From: a virus
Length of the DNA stretch: 33,593 nt
Strand: one strand, 5' to 3'
IMG/VR virus record: IMGVR_UViG_3300006738_000033
Location: 1 to 33,593 of that record
Shown here in pieces: positions 23,309-33,593 of the stretch. Position numbers and translations under genes: made by a program. The notes under the pieces were generated by a model. It saw nothing but the letters and a program-made list of their open reading frames with translations. It ran no database searches and was not told where the DNA came from. The number at the start of each line of letters is the position of its first letter. The stretch's first letter is position 1.

Positions 23309-23468
23309 TTAACTTCCTCTCTAAGATGTGTTGGTTTACTTTTTTAATCAATCTTAATTGCGTACCTCTAGGAGCCGCGTCTAATTGCATAATTGCTTGG
23401 AATAGCGCTCTGTTGTCTTTACCCATGCTATCCACAAATCCTAATAATTTCTTAACTTCATTATCCAT
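23139..23468 (-). CDS. Hypothetical helical protein with basic tail
   Basis: 109 residues from the ATG at 23468, which has GGGAGATAATTAC upstream; in-frame upstream codons are ignored. The first part is helical (MDNEVKKLLGFVDSMGKDNR and LFQAIMQLDAAPRGTQLRL), the tail is Ser/Lys-rich and disordered (KSSKGSSKSKKGTKSKK). It overlaps the next gene by 170 bases in a different frame. A strong promoter lies just upstream at 23494-23522. No family recognised. Confidence 0.55.
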   Translation of the reverse strand: MDNEVKKLLGFVDSMGKDNRALFQAIMQLDAAPRGTQLRLIKKVNQHILERKLNEQRRETRIKELNEFHAKEQEEEKAKSSKGSSKSKKGTKSKKADPGTGESCELPSS

Positions 23469-23952
23469 TGTAATTATCTCCCTGTTTATATTCATTATAC
23501 CAGTCTGTGCCTTCTTCGTCAAGCCTTTTCTTTAAGCATGGGCTATTAGCGTCGGGCGTCCCTGGGGGGTAGCAAGGATGGGTCTCGACTATAAATTCTG
23601 TATCCTCTGTAATCTCTAACTTTATAGGATCTTTATCCTCTTTATACCTATCGTCTATGATCTTTCCATTTTCTACTAACTCCGCTAAGAACCCGATGTT
23701 AGCTGCTATGTGATCGACATGACTTAATCCACTTTCTTCGTCCTTATCTTGTCCTTCTAATAAAGCTACTAAATGCCTATTTAAACTATCAGCAAGTCCG
23801 TGATAGCTCATATGTTTACCACCACCTCTCCAGTTGTGCATACCATATTTCATTTCTCCATACATCATAGCTCTTGCACAAGCTCTCTGTAATGCACCAG
23901 GTACTAAAGATAGCCTGGGTTTCCCTTCATTAAAACGCTTAGCTTCACCCAT
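23461..23952 (-). CDS. DUF5664 dATP/dGTP diphosphohydrolase-like protein
   Basis: 163 residues from the ATG at 23952; a Met two codons upstream (23958) is closer to the AGGAGA and less likely. Conserved motifs of the family are clear: FNEGKPRLSLVP at the start, GEMKYGMHNWRGG, SLNRHLVALLEGQDKDEESGL with SHVDHIAANIGFL, and IIDDR. The acidic and His residues suit a metal-dependent all-alpha pyrophosphatase of the MazG superfamily. Relatives (MazZ) work in diaminopurine phages, but many phages carry the domain without that pathway and no PurZ is seen here. Role: trimming of dNTP pools. Confidence 0.75.
   Translation of the reverse strand: MGEAKRFNEGKPRLSLVPGALQRACARAMMYGEMKYGMHNWRGGGKHMSYHGLADSLNRHLVALLEGQDKDEESGLSHVDHIAANIGFLAELVENGKIIDDRYKEDKDPIKLEITEDTEFIVETHPCYPPGTPDANSPCLKKRLDEEGTDWYNEYKQGDNYNG
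23494..23522 (-). promoter_or_regulatory. Sigma-70-like promoter with extended -10
   Basis: Minus strand TTGACG (23517-23522), exactly 17 bases, then TATAAT (23494-23499) preceded by TGG, which gives an extended -10 (TGnTATAAT). It lies inside the 3' end of the DUF5664 gene and would start transcription near 23487, driving the genes from 23468 down to the sigma factor. Confidence 0.65.
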
Positions 23953-24142
23953 CGCCATACTCTCCTTGTTGTATACGTACTAGTTTTTTTCTGATCATCA
24001 TTAAAGCTACTCTTATCTGTTCATAAGGATCCGGATCATCTTGTCCAGGTAAAGGTAATGCCATATTTGGTAAACGTAATAAGTGTAACATAAATTCTAT
24101 TTCATTATTGATCCCTTCCGCAGGGCTACTTTCTCTATCCAT
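23945..24142 (-). CDS. Hypothetical protein, 65 residues
   Basis: Short, with helical segments (NNEIEFMLHLLRLPNMAL and IRVALMMIRKKLVRI) separated by a Pro/Asp-rich turn. It overlaps the DUF5664 start by a few bases, which suggests joint translation. GGGGATAAC lies before the ATG. Function unknown. Confidence 0.5.
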   Translation of the reverse strand: MDRESSPAEGINNEIEFMLHLLRLPNMALPLPGQDDPDPYEQIRVALMMIRKKLVRIQQGEYGDG

Positions 24143-31968: not shown

Positions 31969-32226
31969 TTATAGAAAAGATGCTGATTTAACTTCTGCTA
32001 TCTTTGCGTCTCGTTCGTCTGTAGTATCAAATGCTTCTTGTACTTGTCTTCCATTACGAAGAATAGCTACTGCGAAGAACTTCAACTTTCTTTCATCTGA
32101 TGTCGGCTGGCCTTGAGCGTCTACTTCTACGGGGATCTCATGTGAAGCTGCTACTACCACGTCTACTGCTGAAGGGTTTACAAATACTGTGTCCCCTTGT
32201 ATATCATTAAAGGTTAAAAAACTCAT
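31969..32226 (-). CDS. Hypothetical protein with VNP motif, 85 residues
   Basis: Starts MSFLTFNDIQGDTVFVNPSA, then alternating strands and a final helix (DERDAKIAEVKSASFL). The G-D-x-V-x-V-N-P opening is shared with many small beta-rich phage and FlbD-like proteins. GGAGACAATAAC precedes the ATG; the gene ends with a double stop TAATAG. Function unknown. Confidence 0.6.
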   Translation of the reverse strand: MSFLTFNDIQGDTVFVNPSAVDVVVAASHEIPVEVDAQGQPTSDERKLKFFAVAILRNGRQVQEAFDTTDERDAKIAEVKSASFL

Positions 32227-32227
32227 G

Positions 32228-32446
32228 TTATTGTCTCCATTTGTTGTACATCCTGAAATACATTCCTATCAGGCATATGTTCAAAACTAGGAGACCCCAA
32301 TGTTGGTATGCGATGATCCATATGAACCATCCAGCCTCCGCTATCAATCCCATTACTGGGGCGTTCTTACTTTTATCACCTGCTAACCACATAGTGATAA
32401 TTGTGAGTATCGAAATTGTAATCTCTGCTATTGTCTCTATCATCAC
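32228..32446 (-). CDS. Small membrane protein, PnuC-half-like
   Basis: 72 residues from ATG 32446. Three hydrophobic stretches: about 5-20, 30-47 (GLIAEAGWFIWIIAYQHW) and 49-65. Spacing of Trp and Gly resembles small phage membrane proteins that look like half of the PnuC nicotinamide riboside transporter fold. In-frame TTG codons further upstream lack a ribosome site and were not used. The function is unknown; transport is only a possibility. Confidence 0.55.
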   Translation of the reverse strand: MMIETIAEITISILTIITMWLAGDKSKNAPVMGLIAEAGWFIWIIAYQHWGLLVLNICLIGMYFRMYNKWRQ

Positions 32447-32474
32447 AACTTCTCTTAAATCAAATGTAGGGTAC

Positions 32475-32486
32475 GGACCGAAGTCC
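32475..32486 (-). other. UUCG tetraloop hairpin in the leader
   Basis: Minus strand GGAC-TTCG-GTCC, an unusually stable tetraloop hairpin, lies between the tmRNA-like element and the small membrane protein gene. No T-run follows, so it is more likely an RNA processing or stability element than a terminator. Confidence 0.45.
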
Positions 32487-32565
32487 TTTAGTTTAATCTG
32501 GTCCCACAGGGTCAATTCCCTTAAGCACAACCCAAACCCCTACGATGCGTTCGGACCTATTTAAA

Positions 32566-32647
32566 TGGTGGAGACGGCCAGAATCGAACTGGCGTCCATG
32601 GCGGTTCCGCGTGCGGCATTACCCCATGTCGAACCCTTCACGTCCCC
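32566..32647 (-). ncRNA. Miniature tmRNA: tRNA-like domain without mRNA part
   Basis: 82 nt ending in encoded CCA. The acceptor stem is GGGGACG paired with CGTCTCC, including G3-U70, the alanine identity pair. Residues 12-20 read GGGTTCGAC, the hallmark segment of tmRNA in place of a D arm. GGAC and the T arm GCCAG-TTCGATT-CTGGC follow. Helix P2 is CATGG/CCATG (20-24 and 47-51), closed by a 22-nt cap with a small CCG/CGG hairpin. Both ends closely resemble bacterial ssrA (B. subtilis starts GGGGACGTTACGGATTCGAC and ends CCGTCTCCACCA). A normal tmRNA has about 280 more bases with a tag frame and pseudoknots here; none is present. It starts five bases after the ligase stop. A normal tRNA is excluded because no D or anticodon arm can form. 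Confidence 0.75.
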
Positions 32648-32652
32648 ATAAC

Positions 32653-33315
32653 TTATTTATCTACTCTCTCTCGTACAAATCTAGGATGTCTAAACTTACC
32701 GTTCGGAGTAAGGCTCATAGCCTCCACTTCAATGATTTTTCCTATAGGAGGGTTTTTAAAGTACTGATCTCGTTGTGCGTCTGTTAGTCCTGTCCCTACT
32801 TTTCCCATGGGTGTCACTAAGGCGCCTGCTTTTCCTAAGTTCTTTCCTTTGCCTTCTATCATTTCTAATACTTCAACGTCGTGTGTCTCTACCGGCTTTA
32901 CTTTGAATAGTCCTTCTGAGCTGCGTATAACTAATCCTTCATATCCCTTACGTACGGCGCTATCGAGTAAACCTTTTACTTCTTTCGGACGAAGTATAAT
33001 ACCGTCTGGATATCCTCCAAATAAGCGCATATCAAGTATAGGGTAGAGTTGGTATAGTGCTTCTTTACTTATCTCCTTTCCCTTGTGCGTCCGCACAGCA
33101 GATACTGAACTTTTCCAGTCTCCTAAATAGACTTCATATATTCCGTCGGGCATGTGTGGCAAATTATGTAAATCCTTTCCTGCACGGGACACCCACTGTC
33201 CGTTTTGTCTTATAGCTTGCACTCCGTCTATTTTATACGCCATGAAAGCTTTAGTAAGATCCCTGTCAAACCTATAAGTTTTGAATTTCAGGATCGATCT
33301 TCTTAAGTCTGTCAT
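32653..33315 (-). CDS. ATP-dependent DNA ligase, short form
   Basis: 220 residues. Motif I is YKIDG with nucleophile K28 near the N-terminus, motif III-like IYEVYL near 70, motif IV GLVIR near 130 and motif V KVKP near 140. A compact OB-fold end (GKIIEVEAMSLTPNGKFRHP) follows. It is about half the length of T4 or T7 ligases and has no extra DNA-binding domain, as in minimal ligases. It seals nicks in replication and repair. Its start lies inside the small gene upstream (44-base overlap). Confidence 0.85.
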   Translation of the reverse strand: MTDLRRSILKFKTYRFDRDLTKAFMAYKIDGVQAIRQNGQWVSRAGKDLHNLPHMPDGIYEVYLGDWKSSVSAVRTHKGKEISKEALYQLYPILDMRLFGGYPDGIILRPKEVKGLLDSAVRKGYEGLVIRSSEGLFKVKPVETHDVEVLEMIEGKGKNLGKAGALVTPMGKVGTGLTDAQRDQYFKNPPIGKIIEVEAMSLTPNGKFRHPRFVRERVDK

Positions 33316-33463
33316 ATGCCTCTTGTCCTAGTTTATCATATTTGCGTAATATGGTAGTTCTTATTTCTTTTACTTCGTCGTCCCTTTGTTCATAAGGGAT
33401 ATCATTCATTTGTCTTAAACACGTTTTAAGTATTCTTCTTAACTCCAATTTCTTATGTAACAC
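33272..33463 (-). CDS. Hypothetical helical protein, GTG start
   Basis: 63 residues, strongly charged, helical (LRRILKTCLRQMNDIPYEQR, TTILRKYDKLGQEAYDRL). Initiates at GTG 33463 with GAGG eight bases upstream. It overlaps the ligase start by 44 bases. Function unknown; the gene is the first seen in the leftward block in this window. Confidence 0.5.
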   Translation of the reverse strand: MLHKKLELRRILKTCLRQMNDIPYEQRDDEVKEIRTTILRKYDKLGQEAYDRLKKIDPEIQNL

Positions 33464-33495
33464 TTCCTGTTCCTCGCATTTACCTCGATTATATG

Positions 33496-33553
33496 TACTT
33501 GACCCACTTTAAGGATTCGAACCTTAATTTCTGCACCAGCCATGGGACAAGTA
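33496..33553 (-). other. tRNA-like T-arm element
   Basis: Minus strand TAAGG-TTCGAAT-CCTTA (33526-33510) is a perfect T arm with canonical loop. It is enclosed by an eleven-pair helix with one T-T mismatch (TACTTGTCCCA, 33553-33543, with TGGGTCAAGTA, 33506-33496), and a small CTG-GTG-CAG hairpin lies between. Alternatively TCTACTT can pair with AAGTGGG next to the T arm as an acceptor stem. No D or anticodon arm fits, so this is not an ordinary tRNA. It may be a decayed tRNA or a second small tRNA-like RNA. The 40 bases to the end of the window show nothing else. Confidence 0.35.
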
Positions 33554-33593
33554 GATATAAAAATTCCCAACGTACGATCTTAAAGGGGAGGGG

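What the first reader, a model, noticed from the sequence alone, without database searches (positions are those of the whole stretch)
32566..32647. Phage-encoded miniature tmRNA made only of the tRNA-like domain
The element has all diagnostic parts of the tmRNA tRNA-like domain (acceptor with G3-U70, GGGTTCGAC, GGAC, T arm, encoded CCA) and a shortened P2 closed by a 22-nt cap, but no tag frame, resume codon context or pseudoknots. Stems are intact, so it does not look decayed. Established knowledge: this domain is alanylated by AlaRS and bound by SmpB and EF-Tu. Inference: it may occupy SmpB or stalled ribosomes without supplying a message, acting as a decoy of trans-translation, or it may add only alanine. 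I know of no described phage RNA of this form.
Basis: partly seen in the sequence, partly recalled or inferred. Interest (0 to 1): 0.9.

Follow-up and report, generated by a model that had tools for sequence, protein, structure and literature searches.

The report
Phage tmRNA stripped of its message
This phage carries a tiny RNA gene that keeps only the tRNA-shaped half of the bacterial ribosome-rescue RNA (tmRNA); one such phage RNA was described before, but relatives turn up in a wide range of phages and look built to be loaded with alanine and to interfere with ribosome rescue.

Summary
Window 32566-32647 (-) matches Rfam tmRNA (65.1 bits, E 2e-23) with the message/pseudoknot domain replaced by 20 nt; ARAGORN misses it. 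It is not decay or an assembly join: a second contig of the virus has it, and 195 of 208 viral loci brought in by IMG/VR patterns hold an intact tRNA-like domain, 152 distinct sequences. P2 covaries strongly. The alanine-identity pair G3-U70 is kept in 151 of 152, A73 in 152. Named Streptomyces phages carry it, four beside a full tmRNA. SmpB: 0 of 74 records searched.

The claim that no such phage RNA is described is wrong: mycobacteriophage DS6A has a TLD-only ssrA, and such a molecule inhibits tmRNA (PMC4131195, PMC11915505). New are the breadth, the retained charging identity, a cap conserved in part of the family, and coexistence with full tmRNA. Best reading: an alanine-charged competitor using host SmpB to enter stalled ribosomes without supplying a tag template. 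Bolder: template-free alanine addition, as TLD plus SmpB does in vitro. Expression and function are untested.

The parts
32566..32647 (-). TLD-only tmRNA gene (82 nt, 3' CCA encoded)
   Evidence: RF00023 65.1 bits; model R1, built without it, 73.2 bits
32641..32647 (-). acceptor stem 5' strand GGGGACG (G3 pairs with U70)
32628..32640 (-). D-loop-like segment TGAAGGGTTCGAC, no D stem
32621..32627 (-). P2 5' strand ATGGGGT
   Evidence: pairs with 32598-32605 with one bulged G
32607..32616 (-). cap hairpin CCG-CACG-CGG, after internal-loop strand AATG (32617-32620)
   Evidence: sequence; conserved in the class of relatives with a 30-nt arm
32598..32605 (-). P2 3' strand ACCGCCAT
32594..32597 (-). 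GGAC linker typical of tmRNA
32577..32593 (-). T arm GCCAG-TTCGATT-CTGGC
32570..32576 (-). acceptor stem 3' strand CGTCTCC
32566..32569 (-). discriminator A73 and encoded CCA
32653..33315 (-). upstream ORF, ATP-dependent DNA ligase C-terminal part; its stop codon ends 5 nt before the element
   Evidence: PHROG 114 E 1.9e-36; Pfam DNA_ligase_OB_2
32228..32530 (-). downstream ORF of unknown function, same strand
   Evidence: no Pfam match

Best explanation
It is a working gene for a message-less tmRNA of the DS6A type. SHOWN here: the tRNA-like fold is under selection in a broad phage family; alanine identity (G3-U70, A73) is kept almost without exception; the tag template and pseudoknots are absent; no SmpB was found in the phage records searched. 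INFERRED: host RNase P and RNase Z (and the CCA-adding enzyme where CCA is not encoded) release it from a phage transcript; host AlaRS charges it; host SmpB and EF-Tu carry Ala-mini-tmRNA into ribosomes stalled without mRNA in the A site; it may take the nascent chain plus one alanine but offers no resume codon. By occupying SmpB and stalled ribosomes it competes with host tmRNA and lowers ssrA tagging of nascent, including phage, proteins.
For: Homology and covariation: RF00023; R1 built without the window; P2 87.4% paired vs 42.2% shuffled (max 48.0) and 28-42% slid, in 100 distinct sequences; 89.2% vs 35-43% slid in the larger set; whole structure 96.9% vs 63.7%, covariation score 0.748 vs 0.147, on an alignment fitted to the structure. 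Charging: G3-U70 151/152, A73 152/152 while acceptor pairs 4-6 vary with compensation. Amount: in one group the element lies 33-299 nt upstream of the major capsid gene, same strand, in 13 of 14 loci with that neighbour, which suggests high late expression. Cofactor: SmpB in 0 of 74 records. Literature: a TLD-only molecule strongly inhibits tmRNA (PMC4131195, passage); TLD with SmpB is enough for ribosome entry and peptidyl transfer in vitro (PMC2481249, passage; PMC3929946, passages).
Against: No transcript, charging or binding data for any member. PMC4131195 says inhibition by a similar molecule did not need charging, so retained charging identity is not explained by inhibition through SmpB titration alone. 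In five records (G006 and Streptomyces phages Riptide, Sushi23, MulchMansion, Anedea) the mini gene coexists with a full-length tmRNA match; a general inhibitor would also hit the phage's own tmRNA. In the last four the TTCGAC and GGAC motifs are altered, and TTCGAC also in BRock and Alone3, so SmpB binding there is uncertain; the Alone3 copy has four mispairs in P2 and T stem and falls below the Rfam cut-off (36.8 bits). The cap has no role in this model. The thermodynamic fold does not support the cloverleaf.
Confidence: 0.5

Rival explanations
1. Template-free alanine addition: the charged RNA is handed from one to the next with SmpB on stalled ribosomes, adding one or more alanines without a message, as a tag-less rescue or an Ala-tailing system run by the phage.
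For: Strict G3-U70 and A73. In vitro, SmpB with TLD alone made polyalanine, the chain passing from one TLD to the next (Shimizu and Ueda 2006 as told in PMC2481249, and PMC3929946; original not read). Mitochondrial tmRNAs without a tag frame are argued to remain useful (PMC11915505). Coexistence with full tmRNA in five records fits a separate job.
Against: I know of no demonstration in a cell, and made no search for one beyond; a ribosome without a stop codon would still need release by another factor.
Confidence: 0.2
2. Passive SmpB sponge: only binding matters, charging does not.
For: [quoted passage not shown]
Against: G3-U70 and A73 would be free to drift but are kept in 151 and 152 of 152.
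Confidence: 0.12
3. Processing signal: the tRNA-like fold is cut out by RNase P and Z to give neighbouring phage mRNAs defined ends, the released RNA being waste; or it is a bait for tRNA-attacking host defences.
For: It sits between genes of one strand, for example between prohead protease and capsid genes (ten loci), or in tRNA arrays with an RNA ligase gene.
Against: Needs neither alanine identity nor the cap; a plain tRNA or hairpin would do; the places vary widely.
Confidence: 0.1
4. Decayed host ssrA, attachment-site remnant or assembly join.
For: Prophages can use host ssrA as integration site and carry fragments of it (PMC9004378, passage).
Against: Same sequence in a second contig of the virus; conserved arm length, 26-32 nt in 130 of 152; covariation; both halves of the domain present, unlike an att remnant.
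Confidence: 0.02

Closest known systems
TLD-only ssrA of mycobacteriophage DS6A (PMC4131195, PMC11915505)
   Same: phage gene, little more than the tRNA-like domain, no tag frame
   Different: no sequence comparison made: the record is not held under the two accessions that I recalled and tried; its cap is unknown to me
Standard bacterial tmRNA, Rfam RF00023
   Same: acceptor with G3-U70, GGUUCGAC, GGAC, T arm, start of P2
   Different: no tag template, no resume codon, no pseudoknots; 82 nt against a model of 374 positions
CDS-less organelle tmRNAs (mitochondrial RF02544; Mallomonadaceae plastids ~65 bp; PMC11915505)
   Same: tRNA-like domain without tag frame
   Different: organelle; the mitochondrial genes usually permuted; here viral and not permuted
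TLD constructs of structural biology (2CZJ, described in PMC3929946)
   Same: 5' and 3' ends of tmRNA joined by a short capped P2
   Different: artificial UUCG cap; the phage arm carries an A-rich internal loop and its own hairpin

Membership tests
Standard tmRNA (RF00023) | tRNA-like domain with G3-U70, A73, D-loop GGUUCGAC without D stem, GGAC, T arm | tested here: met
Standard tmRNA (RF00023) | tag reading frame with resume codon and stop | tested here: not met
   20 nt in place of 312 model positions; no GCC-GCA-to-stop frame (sequence); ARAGORN none
Standard tmRNA (RF00023) | pseudoknots PK1-PK4 | tested here: not met
   no room: 20 nt between the matched ends
TLD-only (CDS-less) phage tmRNA, DS6A type | phage-borne tRNA-like domain of tmRNA without message | tested here: met
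   head, packaging and replication genes in the same virus record
TLD-only (CDS-less) phage tmRNA, DS6A type | inhibits cellular tmRNA when expressed | not testable with these tools
   reported for a similar molecule (PMC4131195)
TLD-only (CDS-less) phage tmRNA, DS6A type | sequence kinship to DS6A | not tested
   record not held under two accessions
Permuted (two-piece) tmRNA | acceptor 3' half precedes 5' half in the gene | tested here: not met
   order is 5' half then 3' half; RF04321 only 20 bits, E 3.1
tRNA | anticodon arm and D stem | tested here: not met
   ARAGORN 0 genes; no RF00005 match in the window

The most novel reading that the evidence does not exclude
A widespread family of phage RNAs turns host SmpB, EF-Tu and AlaRS into a template-free alanine-adding system on stalled ribosomes, replacing the degradative ssrA tag by none or by short alanine tails; the conserved cap is a contact point that adapts the domain to work without the message, and some phages run it beside their own full tmRNA.
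Probability: 0.2. Interest if true: 0.92.

Novelty: new member of a known kind. Interest (0 to 1): 0.7.

Why it matters
A form described in the texts that I saw for one phage, with only 9 'Standard, no CDS' entries among 97,179 unique sequences in the 2025 tmRNA database (PMC11915505), turns out to be a recurring cargo of varied phages that ARAGORN mostly misses (3 of 121 sites overlapped by a call). It suggests that phages act on ribosome rescue by an RNA, offers culturable systems (such as Streptomyces phages LuckySocke, GiJojo, BRock and Riptide) in which to test it, and bears on whether a tRNA-like domain with SmpB can act on its own in cells.

Tried and rejected
Relatives of the window in named phages: no DNA match to the element's flank or to window 9000-33593; DNA polymerase gave only distant hits of 22-29% identity, portal none, so the host is unknown. 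Att-site remnant or assembly join: rejected (and covariation). Permuted or two-piece tmRNA: rejected. A short tag hidden in the cap: rejected (no stop in that frame). A promoter of its own: no sigma-70-like site upstream on its strand in 32100-33593, so co-transcription with the ligase gene is likelier. A constant protein partner: neighbours within 2.5 kb vary (largest cluster 18 of 152 loci). A kink-turn or UAA/GAN motif in the cap: considered, not tested. Phage hits that looked like minis but are permuted tmRNAs: SM1, QDWS595, S-CRM01. The plain MAFFT alignments A1 and A2 misplace part of the acceptor and were not used for counts.

Limits: TTCGAC, GGAC and GTTCRANTC were fixed by the search patterns, so their conservation is not counted; acceptor pairs, G3-U70, A73, P2 and cap were free. 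The filter (acceptor at least 6 of 7 pairs, T stem at least 4 of 5) dropped 14 of 209 matches: L016, L018, L029, L070, L095, L239, L249 and seven with long gaps; L018 still scores 46 bits with R1. The 208 loci include the window and L227, the same virus. R1 was built from 14 of 22 elements with a 30-nt arm. Alignment A4 holds 100 matches, three of them weak (23-24 bits); on it the count of further pair types is not exceptional (66 of 500 shuffles as high). Three of five IMG/VR pattern scans stopped at 120 rows, so totals are lower bounds. SmpB and RF00023 searches covered 74 records each, not all loci, and many are fragments; permuted tmRNA was not sought in them. The count of cap hairpins has no chance control.

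Full report
What is there. On the minus strand at 32647-32566 lies an 82-nt sequence that cmscan assigns to tmRNA (RF00023, 65.1 bits, gathering 47, E 2.2e-23), matched from model position 1 to 374 with 312 positions replaced by 20 nt. ARAGORN reports nothing in the window, and at E up to 5 the other three Rfam matches score far below their cut-offs. It has a 7-bp acceptor stem with G3-U70, GGGTTCGAC without a D stem, a short P2, GGAC, a perfect T arm, A73 and encoded CCA. P2 is imperfect: 7 pairs with one bulged G, or 5 of 7 when read straight. RNA folding alone does not give the cloverleaf.

Where it lies. The window is a 33.6-kb virus record of a tailed phage with terminase, portal, head protein, DNA polymerase, exonuclease and DNA ligase genes. 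No similar named phage was found by DNA; protein hits are remote or absent. The element follows the stop codon of a ligase-like ORF by 5 nt on the same strand. A second, longer contig (42,645 bp) has 99.97% identity over 3,602 bases including the element (place), so it is not a one-off assembly join. A more distant relative with a 43% identical ligase (L378, an 8-kb contig) has no match to the model, which suggests accessory cargo, though that contig is a fragment.

A family. Gap 270-300, as in full tmRNA, hit the limit too, so lengths look bimodal, though the limits prevent exact counts. Over 208 viral loci (window included), 195 hold an element with at least 6 of 7 acceptor and 4 of 5 T-stem pairs; 152 sequences are distinct. 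The arm between the anchors is 26-32 nt in 130 of 152. In 84,980 species genomes, GGTTTCGAC with gap 20-50 gave 24 loci, of which 5 pass the filter; in the ten of these genomes searched with the model, the same five match at E up to 1e-7. Of these five, L129 and L131 carry phage head or packaging proteins and L136 a phage-type glycosyltransferase; L143 matched only PHROGs of unknown function and L137 none, two proteins each.

Selection on structure. In 100 distinct sequences the first seven P2 pairs, placed only by distance from the anchors, are 87.4% standard pairs, against 42.2% (maximum 48.0) in 500 shuffles and 28-42% when slid. In the larger set, arms up to 36 nt, it is 89.2% against 35-43% slid. 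On an alignment fitted to the model (80 distinct rows) 96.9% of cells pair against 63.7% shuffled, with double changes in 18 of 22 pairs, including all seven P2 pairs and all three cap pairs; shuffles reach 15.6 such pairs on average, and further pair types are not exceptional. The acceptor keeps pairs 1-3 nearly fixed while pairs 4-6 vary with compensation.

Charging. G3-U70 is present in 151 of 152; the exception, L044, has a small deletion at the T-stem/acceptor junction compared with L007. A73 is present in 152 of 152; CCA is encoded in 44 of 152, so the others would need the CCA-adding enzyme. That G3-U70 and A73 are alanine identity signals is general knowledge. If only SmpB binding mattered these would be free to drift. 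A GG pair stands within 5 nt before TTCGAC in 91 of 94 distinct sequences from the first scan.

The cap. In the class with a 30-nt arm (31 sequences) the consensus GAAAGCCGCAnGCGGAA carries 0.5-1.8 bits per position (12 of 16 positions at least 1.1) while P2 carries 0.1-0.6; in the 31-nt class (37 sequences) conservation of the cap is patchier. No weighting for kinship was made. A hairpin of at least 3 bp was found in 78 of 100 sequences, without a chance control, and AAA in 57 of 100. Streptomyces phages BRock, LuckySocke, GiJojo, pSt2308, Alone3 and Riptide keep GAAAGCCGCA(C/U)GCGGA although P2 differs among the five distinct sequences. I have no mechanism for this conservation.

Named phages. 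The element is found over the whole model in Streptomyces phages LuckySocke, GiJojo, pSt2308, BRock, Alone3 and Riptide. No RNA is annotated there in the six records: five have no feature, GiJojo a hypothetical gene. It follows a tRNA-Val gene in a tRNA cluster. Sushi23, MulchMansion and Anedea have it too, also after tRNA-Val. The BRock genome paper used ARAGORN (PMC7453282, passages). Riptide, Sushi23, MulchMansion and Anedea also encode a full tmRNA with tag ANSKFAFALAA; in these four the mini's TTCGAC and GGAC are altered, while G3-U70, P2 and GAAAGCC..GGA stay. BRock and Alone3 also depart from TTCGAC, and Alone3 has four mispairs and scores 36.8 bits, below the Rfam cut-off. Of nine tmRNA-bearing phages scanned for a mini at E up to 1e-6, three have one. 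In IMG/VR, one of 35 records (G006) has a mini and a full-length RF00023 match (its ARAGORN tag is unusual); among 31 others every match listed at E up to 1e-16 is mini-sized.

No phage SmpB was found: 0 of 35, 0 of 37 and 0 of 2 records, the control being found in the 10 bacteria of 14 known genomes. ARAGORN gave a tmRNA call overlapping the site in 3 of 121 elements, and no tRNA in 100 of 121 loci.

Neighbourhood. There is no constant partner. In one group the element lies 33-299 nt upstream of the major capsid gene on the same strand (13 of 14 loci with that neighbour), in ten of them with the prohead protease gene on the other side; in another it is 57-112 nt upstream of the portal gene (5 loci) (genes named from one member of each cluster). 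This suits abundant late expression. In the window it is with replication genes.

Mechanism. From the literature: SmpB binds the tRNA-like domain and stands in for the missing anticodon arm (PMC3929946, passages); SmpB with a tmRNA made of TLD alone gives polyalanine in vitro, the chain passing from one TLD to the next, so TLD and SmpB suffice for the tRNA activity (PMC2481249, passage); a molecule similar to that of phage DS6A strongly inhibits tmRNA whether or not chargeable, perhaps by titrating SmpB (PMC4131195, passages; the original, Mao et al. 2009, is not held). My best reading is an alanine-charged competitor; the strict charging identity and the coexistence with full tmRNA keep open that it does something of its own, such as template-free alanine addition.

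Novelty. The kind is known from DS6A. The 2025 database lists 9 'Standard, no CDS' sequences among 97,179 and 79 bacteriophage sequences (PMC11915505, section 12 read); its curators rejected truncated forms and certain large internal deletions, and insisted on all three positions of the CCA tail (passages). That curation and ARAGORN's near silence may explain why the family was overlooked. Ten literature searches (seen as listings, with passages from the papers named here) showed no description beyond DS6A and the organelle forms; most subscription papers are not covered.

Noticed in passing
L390 (Synechococcus phage S-CRM01, NC_015569.1) 985-1157: A very compact permuted tmRNA (RF04321 82.5 bits over 173 nt) with no tmRNA annotated there; the two acceptor strands are separated by only a few bases.
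   Followed up: partly
L391 (Alcaligenes phage QDWS595) 974-1227 and L149 (Pseudomonas phage SM1) 1974-2273: Permuted tmRNAs (RF04321 111 and 118.6 bits) that the records do not annotate.
   Followed up: no
L083 5-81 and 1317-1392; record G016 at 42520 and 109671: Two mini-tmRNA genes in one viral record, in two different records.
   Followed up: no
L006, L054, L074, L080, L188, L200, L221: A still shorter class with an arm of 14-17 nt that has room only for a plain P2 hairpin; G3-U70 and A73 kept.
   Followed up: partly
record G006, C1:77588-77979 (L395): Full-length tmRNA match (94.2 bits) with an odd predicted tag (SPEYRIRLLTNTKW) in the same 124-kb virus as a mini-tmRNA.
   Followed up: partly
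window 23461-23958 (-): dATP/dGTP diphosphohydrolase-like protein (PF18909, E 6.6e-25) in the replication region.
   Followed up: no
window 33505-33530 (-): A T-arm-like stretch (GGTTCGAATCC) near the window end that neither ARAGORN nor Rfam calls as a tRNA.
   Followed up: no
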